A DNA stretch of 61,693 nt. It comes from Okeania sp. KiyG1. Lineage in GTDB: Bacteria > Cyanobacteriota > Cyanobacteriia > Cyanobacteriales > Microcoleaceae. The stretch lies in the NCBI RefSeq assembly GCF_014132355.1, contig NZ_BLZO01000152.1, positions 1 through 61,693 of the forward strand, given 5' to 3'. The notes under the pieces are model-generated. The model had not been told where the DNA came from and made no database searches. It saw only the letters and a program-made list of their open reading frames with translations. Below, piece after piece: positions 14,711 to 21,693 of the stretch (position 1 is its first letter; each line of letters begins with the position of its first letter). The translations under genes and the position numbers were made by a program.

Positions 14711-16891
<2,181 letters not shown>

Positions 16892-17282: not shown

Positions 17283-17380
17283 ATGAGAAGAAACTTTAAT
17301 AAATCAGAACGCCAGACTTTATATGATGCTTACTTTGGTCTTTGTGCTATTTGTGGTTGTAAATTAAGAGAAGGCTTTCA
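17283..17380 (+). pseudogene. 5' part of an HNH-helicase gene interrupted by an insertion sequence
   Basis: ATG at 17283 encodes MRRNFNKSERQTLYDAYFGL CAICGC and the following residues up to ...GFH, where the IS begins at 17381. CAICGC is the first zinc-binding pair of an HNH nuclease. The rest of the motif resumes at 19107 after the IS. Joining 17283-17380 to 19112-21110 gives one uninterrupted 698-codon frame. As it stands, this fragment runs into IS sequence and cannot make the full protein. Confidence 0.85.
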
Positions 17381-17381
17381 C

Positions 17382-18506
17382 TCACATCTTGCACCTGACA
17401 AGACAAAGTTCCAAACCGTGTTTATAAAACCAAGGATTTAGTAACTTTAATTTTTTGATAAGGGAAAGGAGTAAAATCTGAGGTAAGAGCAAAACTAAGG
17501 CTTTTTCGGCTGAATCATACCAATCTAAATCATCAAAATAACCATTATGTAAATAAATCCAATAAGCTAATAAATAAGAGACGAGAGAAAGAATTAACCA
17601 ACGATAAACCCCTAATAAAGTTTTTTGTCCAAAACGATGGAGACTAAATTGATGTTTGGCCGTTTTAAAGAAACCTTCAATCTGCCATCTACGTTTTCCC
17701 CAACGGACGATAGTTTTTCCCTTCATAGGTTTAGTTGAAATAACAAATCGCTTAACTCTTTTTCCATCTCGTTTTAGCCAAACCCATGATAAGAAGACAG
17801 GAAAATTTAAGCCGTTTAGATAAACTTGTTGTCCACGAGTTTTTAGTTCAGACACTTTACGTCCATCAGTTAATTTTCTGGTATTAGGGATGCCAAGAAT
17901 TCCATGATGATTAAAAGAACTGTCACGGAGTTTTTCAATGAATTTAATTGTCCCAAAGGCTGTATCTCCTAAAACATAAATTGGGAAAGATTTTGTCAAA
18001 ATAGAAGGCAATGTATTCAGTAATTTTAAAGCCAGTTGAGAAGGTGATGAGGTTCCTTTGCCTCTATATACACGAAAACTCCAAGGAAATCGCCAATTAC
18101 CTATAACTAAGTAAAGAACAACGATGTGTAAACCTTTTTTATGATTATAAACTCTAACTAATTCTTTTAGATGAACAAACTTCCCTACTTTTTCAAGAGT
18201 TGTTAAATCTAGAATAACTTGTAAAATGAGTTTTCGTCCTTTTATTCTTTCAGATAAAACTAAGTTGAGAATGAAAGAACGAACAGTGCGTATCAGAGAA
18301 CGAGTTGACCAATTATAATGATTTAAGAAGCGACTAATAGCACTTTCTGATTTGGTTTGACAATGATGAGGAACAGCATTTCCTTGACTATGTAGAAACA
18401 AGCCTAAAACAGATTCTAGAGTTTCTTTTTGATAAATTGTGGGCATTAATTCTTTTAAAGAGCAGAGTAATTCGTCAACTTGGGATAAAATGGGGTGAGG
18501 CAACAT
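17382..18506 (-). CDS. IS4-clan DDE transposase
   Basis: ATG at 18506 (MLPHPILSQVDELL) gives 374 aa; a longer in-frame start exists but begins inside the palindrome region. Catalytic residues are apparent as LDLTTLEK (first Asp), LGDTAFG (second Asp) and RRWQIEGFFKTAKHQF (Glu in a YREK-like motif), with a C-terminal hydrophobic stretch. It cuts and joins the IS ends. The TGA stop lies within the left inverted repeat. The frame is intact, so the element may still be active. Confidence 0.88.
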   Translation of the reverse strand: MLPHPILSQVDELLCSLKELMPTIYQKETLESVLGLFLHSQGNAVPHHCQTKSESAISRFLNHYNWSTRSLIRTVRSFILNLVLSERIKGRKLILQVILDLTTLEKVGKFVHLKELVRVYNHKKGLHIVVLYLVIGNWRFPWSFRVYRGKGTSSPSQLALKLLNTLPSILTKSFPIYVLGDTAFGTIKFIEKLRDSSFNHHGILGIPNTRKLTDGRKVSELKTRGQQVYLNGLNFPVFLSWVWLKRDGKRVKRFVISTKPMKGKTIVRWGKRRWQIEGFFKTAKHQFSLHRFGQKTLLGVYRWLILSLVSYLLAYWIYLHNGYFDDLDWYDSAEKALVLLLPQILLLSLIKKLKLLNPWFYKHGLELCLVRCKM

Positions 18507-18533
18507 AGTTCTCTGTTTAAAATAGAGAACTAT
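18505..18533. promoter_or_regulatory. 10-bp perfect palindrome at the divergent start region of the IS genes
   Basis: ATAGTTCTCT (18505-18514) and AGAGAACTAT (18524-18533) are separated by 9 bp. They overlap the transposase start codon and lie 33 bp before the passenger gene. ATAGTTCTCT occurs again at 19006-19015, near the right end of the IS. This fits an operator or transposase-binding site controlling both genes; that function is inferred. Confidence 0.55.
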
Positions 18534-18566
18534 AATAACATATTCCATAATCAAAAAGCTCAAAAA

Positions 18567-18968
18567 ATGGCTAAAATCAACAGTAATCTAGAAATAGCAG
18601 AGCGAGCAGACCGTATTAGAGAAGCTATAGCTGCTTTAAAACGTGAAAAATCAGAAATTGAAGCTTCAGGATGGGTTGCTCCTGCTGATTGTTATGTAGC
18701 ACGGTATCAAGCCAAAGGGCAAAAATATCATTATTGGTATTATCAACTCAAAGGGTCTAGATCTGTTTTCCCAAAAAGTAATAAAAAAGGGGAATTTTCG
18801 CGTTTTAAACATTTAGGAAAAGCAGGAAGTCAAGCACATATAGATGGAGTGAATGCTGTGATTAGAAGAGGTAAAATTGAGCAATTAACTTCAGCTATCG
18901 AAGCACTTTATGAAAGTTGGTTAGATTTATATCCCGATGAAGAAAAAGCAGGTCATCGGGTAGAGTAA
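18567..18968 (+). CDS. IS passenger protein, 133 aa, unknown function
   Basis: ATG at 18567 (MAKINSNLEIAERADRIREA) starts a protein with a coiled-coil-like N-terminus, a central Tyr/Lys-rich segment (YVARYQAKGQKYHYWYYQLKGS), a HLGKAGSQAH motif and a helical C-terminus. The middle looks like a beta-sheet nucleic-acid-binding domain similar to those in transposon-associated small proteins. It lies wholly inside the IS, divergent from the transposase. IS4-like elements of this size rarely carry a second gene, so it may regulate or aid transposition. I do not recognise a named family with confidence. Confidence 0.6.
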   Translation: MAKINSNLEIAERADRIREAIAALKREKSEIEASGWVAPADCYVARYQAKGQKYHYWYYQLKGSRSVFPKSNKKGEFSRFKHLGKAGSQAHIDGVNAVIRRGKIEQLTSAIEALYESWLDLYPDEEKAGHRVE

Positions 18969-19106
18969 GATTAATTTACCCTCTGGTTTTTATTACTTCT
19001 TCATTATAGTTCTCTATTGAGAAGAGATAACTAACTCCCACCTCCGATCAGATAAGTATTTCAGTTATTGTTCTTCATATCAACTTTTGTTGGTGCAAGA
19101 TGTGAG

Positions 19107-21110
19107 TTTCACATCGATCATATAATTCCTTGGAGTAAAGGGGGCAAAACAGAACTATCTAATGCTCAACCTCTATGCCCAAATTGCAATCTAAAAAAAT
19201 CAAATCGAACAGGAGAAAATATGGCGCAAAGTTGGTCAGGTGTTACTTTGCCAGATTGGTTTAGACCTCGTGAATGGCAAGAAGAAGCATTTAAAATTTA
19301 TCAGCAAAAGTGTATTGGGGGTGATGAGGCTAATTTTCTGTTGCAAGCTTGTCCAGGAGCAGGTAAAACACACTTTATTTGTGCTGTTATATATGTTCTT
19401 CAGAAACTAAATCTTATTGACTGGGCAATTATTTGTGTTCCTGGCGACCACTTAAGAACTCAGTTTGCTAGGGATGCAATGGATTGGGATTTAGATTTAT
19501 TTGGAACAACTAAGCTTTGTGTAGTTGATGACTATCATGGAGAAGTAGTTACCTACCCTCAACTTGACAATGGAAAATCTACCTACAAGCAAAGAATTCA
19601 TAAGTTTCATGGTAGGGTTTTAATTATTGGAGATGAAATACACCACCTCAGTGACGAAAATAGTTGGGGTGAAGGTTTTACTTTTGCTTTTTCTGAGGCA
19701 AAGTACAGATTATTTACTACTGGTACTCCTTTTCGCAGCGATAATGCAGAAATTGTTGGGAAGTGGATAACTTACGAAGTGACAAATAGAGGCGATCGAG
19801 AATGTTCTCTTGATTATCGCTATGGTTATGATAGTGCTGTTAAAGATGGGGTGGTTAGACCTGTTGTTTTTCCCGAATATGATGGTCGGTTTGAATACTG
19901 GAAAGGCGATAAAATTTATCAACAGAGTTTTGAAGAAGCTGAGACTCATTTGGAACAAAGTTACTGTTTACAAACAGCATTAAGTATAGAAGGTGAATGG
20001 ATTAAAGATATTATTAGAGAAGCTGATAACAAGTTATTAGAAATTAGGGAAAATACTAATCACAAAAACGCCGCAGGTTTAATTGTTTGTCAACCTCGCA
20101 AAGGTAAGGATGGCGCTCCCTATGCTAGAAAAGTTTGTCAGCTACTTAAAAAATTAACAGGAGATAAATCAGTTTTAGTAACTTATGAAGATGAAAAAGC
20201 ATCTAGACTAATCGAAGAATTTGCAGTAGGAGATGAAAATTCGCCTCGGTGGATAGTAGCTATTAAGAAAGTTTCTGAGGGAGTTTCAATTAAGCGTTTA
20301 AGGGTTTGTGTTTACGCCACAAATATATTAACAAGAATGTTCTTTGAGCAGGTAGTAGGAAGAATTACTCGTGTTATTCCTAATATAAATAATCAAATGG
20401 CTTATATGTATATTCCTCGTCACCGAACCTTAGAAATGTATGCACTAGATTTTAAGAAAGCTGTTGCTCATATTATTCAAGATATGGAGGAAGCAGAGCA
20501 ATTAAAATCTAATAATGGTAATGGGAAAGAAAATGAATCTAATTCGGGTTTGTTTTTACCTGCTGCTTCAACTGCTGAATTGGAAGGTCATATATTTGAT
20601 GGAGAGCAACACGAAAGAAAACTGATTGAAAAAGCTAAAAAAATTAAAGAAAAACATGGTTTTCTTGGTACTGATGAGGTACTTATAATCAAAATCATGC
20701 GTGAACTCAAAAATGAAGTTATGAGTGAGACTCAGAGAGAAGCCGAAGAGAAAGAAATTGCTAAACAGAAGCAAGAAGAAACAATTAAAAGAACTAAATA
20801 TGAAAGAGTCGAAGCATTTAAAAAAATGCAAAAAAAGCAGACGGCCTGGTTAGCTAGGTTAGAGTTAGGTTTTGATAATAAGAAACTGACAAAAGCAGAA
20901 AACCAAAAATTAGTAGATAGGATAAAATTAATAAATAAGCGTGCTGCCAGAAAATTTGGTAGTTACAACGCTCAAGCCACGGAAGAAATTATTAAGAAAA
21001 AAAATCAGTGGTTGGAGGAGCAAATTAAAGAAGTTCAAAACAGAATTAGAGCTGATAAATTTGAGTATAACGAGGAGGAATATAGATTGTATGGTGAAGA
21101 AGAAATTTAA
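19107..21110 (+). pseudogene. HNH-fused superfamily II helicase, 3' part after the IS
   Basis: The frame continues the HNH motif ([12 protein letters not shown], then [11 protein letters not shown]) and then a superfamily II helicase: motif [10 protein letters not shown], motif II GDEIHHL, motif III TTGTPF, motif V region [15 protein letters not shown] and motif [11 protein letters not shown] Lys/Glu-rich coiled-coil tail of about 150 residues follows. The intact 698-aa protein would unwind or translocate on nucleic acid and cut it. The helicase alone could still be made from ATG 19221, which has AGGAG five bases upstream, giving a 629-aa protein without the HNH domain. The gene overlaps the next by 20 nt. 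The restriction/defence idea is inference. Confidence 0.85.
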
Positions 21111-21693
21111 ACGAGAAGGGTTTGTTTATATTGAACCTAATCTACCAGAACCAAACATTATTGAAGTAACAGATCGTGACCTACATGAAAAAGCTCATAA
21201 GAATTTTATTAGTACAGATGGTCTGACAAAAGATATTAGAATGCAGACTTTTTCAATGTCTATAGCAGCTCAATTTAAAAGACTAATTGAACGTGAAGCC
21301 TGGTATTGTATATACATTCCTAACCTTAGTAAATATGTCAGCTTCAATAAACATAAATTACCTAGTGGAGAGCTAGACCACAGAGCTAATTTCTTAGACT
21401 GGTTAAGAGCAGCTCAGGATGATGGAGGCTTACATTTTGACCCGACAAAACTTGATGCTCTTCTGAAAGGAACTGAAGCTTGGAAAGTTTATCGACAGTT
21501 AATGGATGGAAGTCATCAAGATAGTAATAGTTATAAGTTTTTAGACAATCAATATTTCTCAAAAATTGACGATAAACCCAAAACTATTAATGTCAAAATA
21601 GACGATCCAGAAGAAACAGCGATTAAACTTTTAGAACACTATCAAGGTAAGAATTTAGAAAAACTTATTAAAATACTTAAACAGAATTTATAA
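21091..21693 (+). CDS. 200-aa partner of the HNH-helicase, unknown
   Basis: ATG at 21091 with GAGGAGGAA at 21072-21080 overlaps the helicase stop by 20 nt, so the two are coupled. The protein has a basic start ([11 protein letters not shown]), a helical middle with conserved-looking [15 protein letters not shown] and [21 protein letters not shown], and a C-terminal segment with [19 protein letters not shown]. No catalytic signature is obvious. The DHR and [10 protein letters not shown] segments might belong to a DNA-handling domain. I do not recognise the family. Its strict coupling to the helicase suggests a specificity, regulatory or toxin-control subunit. Confidence 0.7.

What the first reader, a model, noticed from the sequence alone, without database searches (positions are those of the whole stretch)
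17283..21693. Candidate undescribed two-gene HNH-SF2 helicase plus 200-aa partner system
An HNH nuclease fused to a superfamily II helicase with a long coiled-coil tail is coupled by a 20-nt overlap to an unknown 200-aa protein. It sits next to conjugation genes and mobile elements. Nuclease-helicase pairs with a small coupled partner are a recurring form of anti-phage systems, but I do not recognise this pair as any named system.
Basis: partly seen in the sequence, partly recalled or inferred. Interest (0 to 1): 0.75.

Follow-up and report, generated by a model that had tools for sequence, protein, structure and literature searches.

The report
Phage-type helicase-nuclease gene pair, IS-broken
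Two overlapping genes in a cyanobacterium, a DNA-cutting helicase and a small partner, match an unnamed gene pair seen mainly in phage and plasmid sequences near DNA replication and recombination genes, so it is probably mobile-element DNA machinery rather than an anti-phage defence, and here a jumping gene has split the cutting domain.

Summary
A 1,726-bp insertion sequence (17381-19106) splits its HNH domain; the SF2 helicase part (19107-21110) and the 200-aa partner (21091-21693, 20-nt overlap) are open. The pair is a real, recurrent, unnamed module. Of 38 IMG/VR viral contigs with an HNH-SF2 homologue, 35 have the partner family directly downstream and two more a partner-like gene upstream. 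It also occurs in one isolated phage, three Streptomyces plasmids and, without HNH, a Planktothrix plasmid. None of 79 HNH-less helicase loci from bacterial genome contigs has it.

Neighbours in the viral loci include many replication and recombination genes; the helicase resembles XPB and RadD best, but a type I restriction subunit outscores UvsW. The defence reading is not supported; the best reading is a mobile-element branch-processing helicase-nuclease with a DNA-binding partner (inferred, 0.55). The phage partner has a confident predicted fold without a significant Foldseek match in the PDB; the window partner shows the same element order minus an HTH-like insert (weaker model). Five literature searches aimed at the pair gave no description. 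New variant of a known kind.

The parts
17283..17380 (+). 5' part of the HNH-SF2 gene: start codon and first Cys-x2-Cys of the HNH domain
   Evidence: Translation; a Cys-x2-Cys stands there in most aligned homologues; no Pfam hit by itself
17381..19106 (.). insertion sequence (IS4-like by its DDE_Tnp_1 transposase; family name recalled) splitting the HNH domain
   Evidence: Perfect terminal inverted repeats; DDE_Tnp_1; six full-length hits in this genome incl. this one, two of them perhaps one copy
17382..18563 (-). transposase of the insertion sequence
   Evidence: PF01609, E 1.7e-13
18567..18968 (+). second ORF (133 aa) inside the insertion sequence; covered by all six full-length hits, so probably part of the element
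   Evidence: one Pfam match below cut-off, no PHROG or NCBIfam match at E up to 1
17376..17380 (.). target-site duplication TTTCA, left copy
19107..19111 (.). target-site duplication TTTCA, right copy
19107..21110 (+). 3' part of the HNH-SF2 gene: rest of the HNH domain (about 19107-19208), SF2 helicase core (about 19263-20420), C-terminal region
   Evidence: PF01844, PF14279, PF04851; SF2 motifs invariant in a 32-row alignment. The in-frame stretch 19077-19106 before it is insertion-sequence DNA
19221..19223 (+). in-frame ATG between HNH and helicase domains, AGGAG 5 nt upstream: possible start of an HNH-less helicase
   Evidence: 36 of 42 relatives have a Met in this linker; 0.22 for same-length windows elsewhere; Shine-Dalgarno support weak in the family
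21073..21078 (+). AGGAGG, Shine-Dalgarno-like, inside the helicase gene, 12 nt before the partner's ATG
21091..21693 (+). 200-aa partner gene, overlapping the helicase gene by 20 nt; lacks the HTH-like insert of phage partners
   Evidence: profile of 29 partners E 6.9e-6 among 14.5k ORFs, 0 of 5000 shuffles as high; predicted element order

Best explanation
It is a mobile-element DNA-processing module. An ATP-driven SF2 translocase akin to XPB and RadD carries an N-terminal HNH nuclease and is translationally coupled to a small adaptor (two helices, a beta-hairpin, three helices, an optional HTH-like insert, two helices). Shown: the domains, the coupled gene order, its recurrence, and its presence in viral and plasmid sequences, often with replication and recombination genes nearby. 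Inferred: the partner binds DNA and/or the helicase and places it on forks or branches of the element's own DNA; the motor moves or opens the branch; the HNH cuts it, for recombination-dependent replication or branch removal. In this genome the nuclease domain is split by an IS, so at most an HNH-less helicase plus partner can be made.
For: Partner profile hits next to 35 of 38 HNH-SF2 viral loci and 15 of 30 viral loci without HNH by my pattern, versus 0 of 79 HNH-less genome-contig loci. Portal gene in 12 of 41 records, all 12 viral contigs. Among 185 neighbouring ORFs: DnaB, primase/helicase, Erf, RecT, RecE/YqaJ, SSB, O-like initiators, DnaD, RusA (each 1-3 ORFs). Of 10 near neighbours that I picked: replication initiation 3, DnaD-like 1, exonuclease 2, RusA 1, integrase 1, unknown 2. 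YqaJ in 9, ERF in 6, SSB in 11 of 39 records; median gaps to the module 10.0, 3.0, 2.7 kb, portal 18.2 kb; median share of the contig within that gap 0.26, 0.38, 0.29, portal 0.71. Phage PIS 136: pair between DnaB and Pol III alpha genes, YqaJ-type nuclease 4 kb away. Planktothrix plasmid: pair about 6-15 kb from VirB10, dnaN, dnaX, holA. Closest solved helicases: XPB 9.3e-23, RadD 2.7e-17.
Against: No activity was measured. A type I restriction R subunit (3h1t, 7.6e-14) and some RNA helicases score above UvsW (1.5e-7). In G288 a methylase-like gene directly precedes the pair. The neighbour scans do not say which loci had such neighbours; 30, 33 and 28 of 39 records lack YqaJ, ERF and SSB (many are fragments). 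The SSB rows are largely one lineage, and YqaJ lies 50 and 68 kb away in two records; no significance test was made. The window itself lies beside conjugation genes, not phage ones. The HTH-like insert is read from sequence and model, without a confident PDB match.
Confidence: 0.55

Rival explanations
1. Anti-phage defence pair: the partner senses invading DNA and the HNH-helicase degrades it.
For: Nuclease-helicase fusions exist in defence (PbeA is an HKD nuclease fused to an SF2 helicase; passages of PMC10853773). The SF2 part matches PADLOC PbeA at 1.1e-12. Among 110 neighbours (window, G288, Planktothrix plasmid, viral loci) single members match candidate-defence models PDC-S03 (2.5e-88), CARF_2OG, RT and RTasDUF1848, and two match mad2/mad3 (members not named by the tool). 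The Planktothrix plasmid has an AAA-ATPase plus DUF4435 pair (PARIS-like, recalled) about 17 kb away.
Against: Partner has no PADLOC match. Partner-bearing relatives are mostly in viral contigs, with replication and recombination genes among the neighbours; the partner is rare in sampled bacterial genomes. 18 of the 25 PADLOC families listed for the neighbours are methyltransferase models (25 of 170 families are listed).
Confidence: 0.15
2. Restriction-type or competitor-killing nuclease carried by phages and plasmids: the partner gives sequence or modification specificity and a methylase protects the carrier.
For: Methylase-like gene, HNH-SF2 and partner in one gene row in G288, 0 and 3 nt apart (methylase named from its sequence and its BLAST cluster). 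Such ORFs lie within the fetched flanks of 7 of 42 loci. A type I R subunit matches the helicase profile at 7.6e-14 and EcoR124-type HsdR at 9e-5.
Against: Of those 7 loci only G288 has the methylase directly adjacent and co-oriented. None of the 10 window neighbours scanned matched a methylase.
Confidence: 0.18
3. Fusion of a selfish (homing-type) HNH with a phage helicase, the nuclease serving only its own spread.
For: Other HNH genes occur among the neighbours (PF01844 in 3 of 95). A Met lies in the HNH-helicase linker in 36 of 42 relatives, as if the helicase once began there.
Against: HNH residues are invariant or nearly so over the aligned rows (but those rows were partly chosen for an HNH pattern), and HNH goes with the partner.
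Confidence: 0.05
4. In this genome the pair is a decaying relic with no present function (not exclusive of the readings above, which concern the family).
For: HNH domain split by an IS whose copies are nearly identical; partner lacks the HTH-like insert.
Against: The remaining helicase frame (about 630-670 codons) and the partner frame are open; an ATG with AGGAG lies just before the helicase; the Planktothrix relative also lacks HNH by my pattern and both its genes are open.
Confidence: 0.4

Closest known systems
RadD (E. coli YejH)
   Same: SF2 motor; profile match over the whole core (71-426), E 2.7e-17; RadD accelerates RecA strand exchange (PMC8887467, abstract)
   Different: The abstract names no HNH domain and no coupled partner
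XPB-Bax1 of archaea
   Same: Best profile match, XPBII E 9.3e-23; motor with a nuclease at forked DNA (PMC7293015, abstract)
   Different: There the nuclease is the partner; here an HNH is fused to the motor and the partner shows no Pfam family over its cut-off
T4 UvsW with UvsW.1 and endonuclease VII
   Same: Phage recombination helicase with a potential DNA-binding partner (PMC7824862, passages); endonuclease VII proposed to cut regressed forks (PMC3016281, passages); sequence match E 1.5e-7
   Different: Weaker match than XPB, RadD, a type I R subunit and some RNA helicases; separate genes in T4; endonuclease VII is not required for T4 recombination-dependent replication
PbeA of PbeABCD
   Same: Nuclease-SF2 fusion; PADLOC match at residues 35-436, E 1.1e-12
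   Different: HKD not HNH nuclease (PMC10853773, passage)
Type I restriction R subunits
   Same: SF2 core match, 3h1t E 7.6e-14
   Different: No linked methylase or specificity subunit recognised in the window; HNH instead of the usual nuclease (recalled)
PHROG phrog_16 DNA helicase
   Same: Phage helicase family, E 8.7e-30 over residues 62-652
   Different: The match begins at profile position 271 of 986; HNH or partner content of that family was not examined

Membership tests
Anti-phage defence system | Components match known or candidate defence models | tested here: inconclusive
   Partner: 0 PADLOC families at E up to 1; helicase matches PbeA over the SF2 part, 1.1e-12
Anti-phage defence system | Clusters with defence genes | tested here: inconclusive
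   110 neighbours scanned; 18 of 25 listed families are methylase models, a few candidate-defence models each match one or two members; 145 of 170 families not listed
Anti-phage defence system | Protects a host from phage | not testable with these tools
   Needs phage challenge
PbeABCD | HKD nuclease fused to SF2 helicase | tested here: not met
   The fused nuclease is HNH
Restriction-modification | Linked methyltransferase | tested here: not met
   None among 10 window neighbours; directly linked in relative G288 only, among the 7 loci with one nearby
XPB / RadD type SF2 helicases | Sequence relationship over the SF2 core | tested here: met
   XPB 9.3e-23, RadD 2.7e-17; a type I R subunit 7.6e-14, DHX58 2.1e-11 and UvsW 1.5e-7 also match, so the subfamily is not fixed
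XPB / RadD type SF2 helicases | Acts on branched DNA or strand exchange | not testable with these tools
   Biochemistry needed
XPB-Bax1 | Associated protein is the nuclease Bax1 | tested here: not met
   Window partner and four relatives show no Pfam family over its cut-off
Phage replication/recombination gene set | Encoded in phage genomes with replication or recombination genes nearby | tested here: inconclusive
   Met for PIS 136 and for several viral loci; not shown for every locus; the window lies beside conjugation genes

The most novel reading that the evidence does not exclude
An undescribed, widespread phage and plasmid machine that couples branch migration and junction cutting in one polypeptide, aimed by a modular adaptor of possibly new fold whose DNA-binding helix-turn-helix can be gained or lost; the pair replaces a separate helicase and resolvase.
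Probability: 0.3. Interest if true: 0.65.

Novelty: new variant of a known kind. Interest (0 to 1): 0.48.

Why it matters
It gives a testable identity to an unnamed partner family seen at 50 of 68 related helicase loci in viral contigs, and warns against calling every nuclease-helicase pair on a mobile element a defence system. If the pair acts on branches, it would be a one-polypeptide counterpart of a recombination helicase plus junction nuclease.

Tried and rejected

The 682 sampled genomes include the window's own and the seed genome, with profile A5 (holding the window partner) at E 1e-3 and A6 at 1e-10. The neighbour scan used 185 of 281 complete ORFs: I left out downstream partner genes and many opposite-strand ORFs that looked spurious, by eye; two upstream partner-like genes stayed in; tables list 25 families at most. 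The ten neighbours were picked because they looked recognisable, so that sample is biased. The 110 proteins are a hand-made selection. Tree: about a third of the genome-contig loci kept, ten fragmentary or remote loci omitted, six cyanobacterial rows lost to a failed ORF extraction; quick method, long branches and letter make-up warnings, the window and Planktothrix rows among those warned of. HNH presence was called by a text pattern, so 'no HNH' may include degenerate forms.
Full report
What is in the window. The frame 17283-17380 starts with an HNH-type Cys-x2-Cys and is then cut by an insertion sequence. The element runs 17381-19106: its ends are perfect inverted repeats, its transposase is a DDE_Tnp_1 protein, and comparison with five other full-length hits in the genome fixes the ends and shows a TTTCA duplication here. 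Two of those hits lie at contig ends and share their left flank, so they may be one insertion. All six full-length hits are reported at 100% identity, so the insertion is probably recent. The gene continues at 19107 with the rest of the HNH domain (PF01844, E 3.8e-13) and an SF2 helicase (PF04851, E 1e-10) to 21110. The partner, 21091-21693, overlaps it by 20 nt and has AGGAGG upstream. The helicase part occurs once in this genome; the other four matches cover only the HNH stretch. Upstream lie a relaxase, a T4SS coupling protein and, below its Pfam cut-off, a ParA-like ATPase, and a group II intron-type reverse transcriptase; a radical-SAM gene follows.

Relatives. The window partner finds no cultured-phage, plasmid or viral-contig match by single sequence. 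Directly after the helicase gene, with overlaps mostly of 4-46 nt, lies an ORF of about 200 aa in most viral loci that bear HNH. A profile of 29 such partners finds the partner at 35 of 38 viral loci with HNH, 15 of 30 viral loci without HNH by my text pattern, the one genome-contig locus with HNH, and 0 of 79 genome-contig loci without. L138 and L146 have a partner-like gene upstream, in one BLAST cluster with the G288 partner; L170 has none. A same-strand ORF of 120 aa or more starts within -60 to +20 nt of the helicase stop at 53 of 68 viral loci but 6 of 80 genome-contig loci. The genome-contig helicases are mostly actinobacterial and Nitrospira proteins. The one cultured phage found with the pair is Saccharomonospora phage PIS 136; a search from another lineage adds 32 other phage records at low coverage, those listed at 20-23% identity. 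Three Streptomyces plasmids carry the partner and match the helicase; I opened two. Partner profiles hit 2 of 386 cyanobacterial genomes, the window's included, and 2 of 296 actinobacterial ones, the seed genome included.

Is the window partner a member? Against 14.5 thousand ORFs it scores E 6.9e-6 with the phage profile, its single matching stretches being weak (best domain E 0.073); none of 5000 shuffles scores as high, the best reaching E 0.036. The Planktothrix partner bridges the two: E 1.4e-9 with the phage profile and BLAST E 6e-6 with the window partner in a database of 14 proteins. The G288 partner does not reach significance (E 1.2). Predicted structure gives the same order of elements. 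Phage partner L169, pLDDT 88: two helices, beta-hairpin, three helices, three HTH-like helices, two helices. Window partner, pLDDT 65: two helices, beta-hairpin, three helices, two helices. So the HTH-like insert is missing here. The HTH name is my reading of sequence and model. Nothing in the PDB matched with confidence.

The helicase-nuclease. In 32 rows, partly chosen for an HNH pattern, the Walker and DExH motifs, later SF2 motifs and the HNH Cys, His, Asn residues are invariant or nearly so (motif names recalled; the window row's first Cys there is insertion-sequence DNA). The best solved relatives are XPB (9.3e-23) and RadD (2.7e-17); a type I restriction R subunit follows (7.6e-14), then RNA helicases, with UvsW at 1.5e-7. 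In a quick tree the window groups with the Planktothrix plasmid helicase (SH-aLRT 96), and these with the G288 protein and viral L138/L146 (98), apart from the actinobacterial and Nitrospira groups (long branches, make-up warnings). A Met sits in the linker between HNH and helicase in 36 of 42 relatives, against 0.22 for same-length windows; a Shine-Dalgarno-like stretch stands before it in 5 of 36 (background 0.06), so an internal start is only hinted at in the family; in the window, AGGAG precedes the ATG at 19221 by 5 nt. The rows are related, so these counts are not independent.

Surroundings of the relatives. Of 41 records (38 viral contigs, PIS 136, a Streptomyces plasmid, a Saccharothrix genome) 12, all viral contigs, hold a Phage_portal gene. 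Among 185 of 281 neighbouring ORFs within 4.5 kb in 31 loci, annotated matches include DnaB, primase/helicase, Erf, RecT, RecE/YqaJ, SSB, O-like and other initiators, DnaD, RusA, integrases, terminase, methylases, HNH and transposases; each listed family is hit by one to three ORFs, and at most 25 families are listed per scan. Of ten near neighbours that I picked, seven are replication or recombination proteins, one an integrase, two unknown (a biased pick). YqaJ, ERF and SSB occur in 9, 6 and 11 of 39 records and lie nearer to the module than the portal gene does (median gaps 10.0, 3.0, 2.7 and 18.2 kb), without a test of significance. In PIS 136 the pair lies between DnaB and Pol III alpha genes. 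On the Planktothrix plasmid it lies upstream of VirB10 and of dnaN, dnaX, holA. In G288 a methylase-like gene precedes it directly. A PADLOC scan of 110 chosen neighbours lists mostly methylase models (18 of 25 listed), plus PDC-S03, CARF_2OG, RT, RTasDUF1848 and mad2/mad3 models with one or two members each; these are results on the side of a defence reading, though the tool does not say which neighbours they are.

Judgement. A system found chiefly in viral sequences, in several of them among that virus's replication and recombination genes, is unlikely to be primarily anti-phage. The simplest account is a motor-nuclease that processes branched or forked element DNA, with a small DNA-binding adaptor. 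The analogy is to RadD (PMC8887467, abstract), to XPB-Bax1 (PMC7293015, abstract), and more loosely to T4 UvsW, its potential DNA-binding partner UvsW.1 (PMC7824862, passages) and endonuclease VII (PMC3016281, passages). This is likeness of work, not membership. Phages also carry weapons against rivals, and the G288 methylase-like gene and the type I R-subunit match keep a restriction-like reading open.

Noticed in passing
window 17381-19106: The insertion sequence carries a second 133-aa ORF of no family found beside its transposase; all six full-length hits in the genome cover it, so it is probably an IS with a passenger gene.
   Followed up: partly
window 15303-16871: Group II intron-type reverse transcriptase (RVT_1, RVT_N, GIIM) ending about 410 bp before the broken HNH gene.
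   Followed up: no
L190 8903-13150 (genome G288): Methylase-like, HNH-SF2 and partner genes in one row: the only directly adjacent restriction-like arrangement seen.
   Followed up: partly
L214 411-2803 (Planktothrix agardhii plasmid p1): AAA-ATPase plus DUF4435 pair, resembling the PARIS defence system (recalled, not tested by name), about 17 kb from the helicase pair.
   Followed up: no
L010 1-6422 (Enterobacter IncHI2A plasmid): A related HNH-less helicase follows a 189-aa gene and lies beside CBASS phospholipase and TIR genes; BLAST shows no match of its small gene to the partner.
   Followed up: partly
L014-L041 (loci): Helicases of mostly about 490 aa related to the SF2 part (25-30% identity) occur in 34 of 385 other sampled cyanobacterial genomes, all in one family (f25); G288 has one besides its HNH form.
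   Followed up: no
L208 6032-6451 (genome G036): A 139-aa protein matching only the HTH-plus-tail half of the partner, next to a 487-aa gene with no helicase beside it in the stretch fetched.
   Followed up: partly
L207 148-2230 (genome G540): A partner gene near a contig end beside an integrase-like ORF (my reading of the sequence), possibly a prophage.
   Followed up: no
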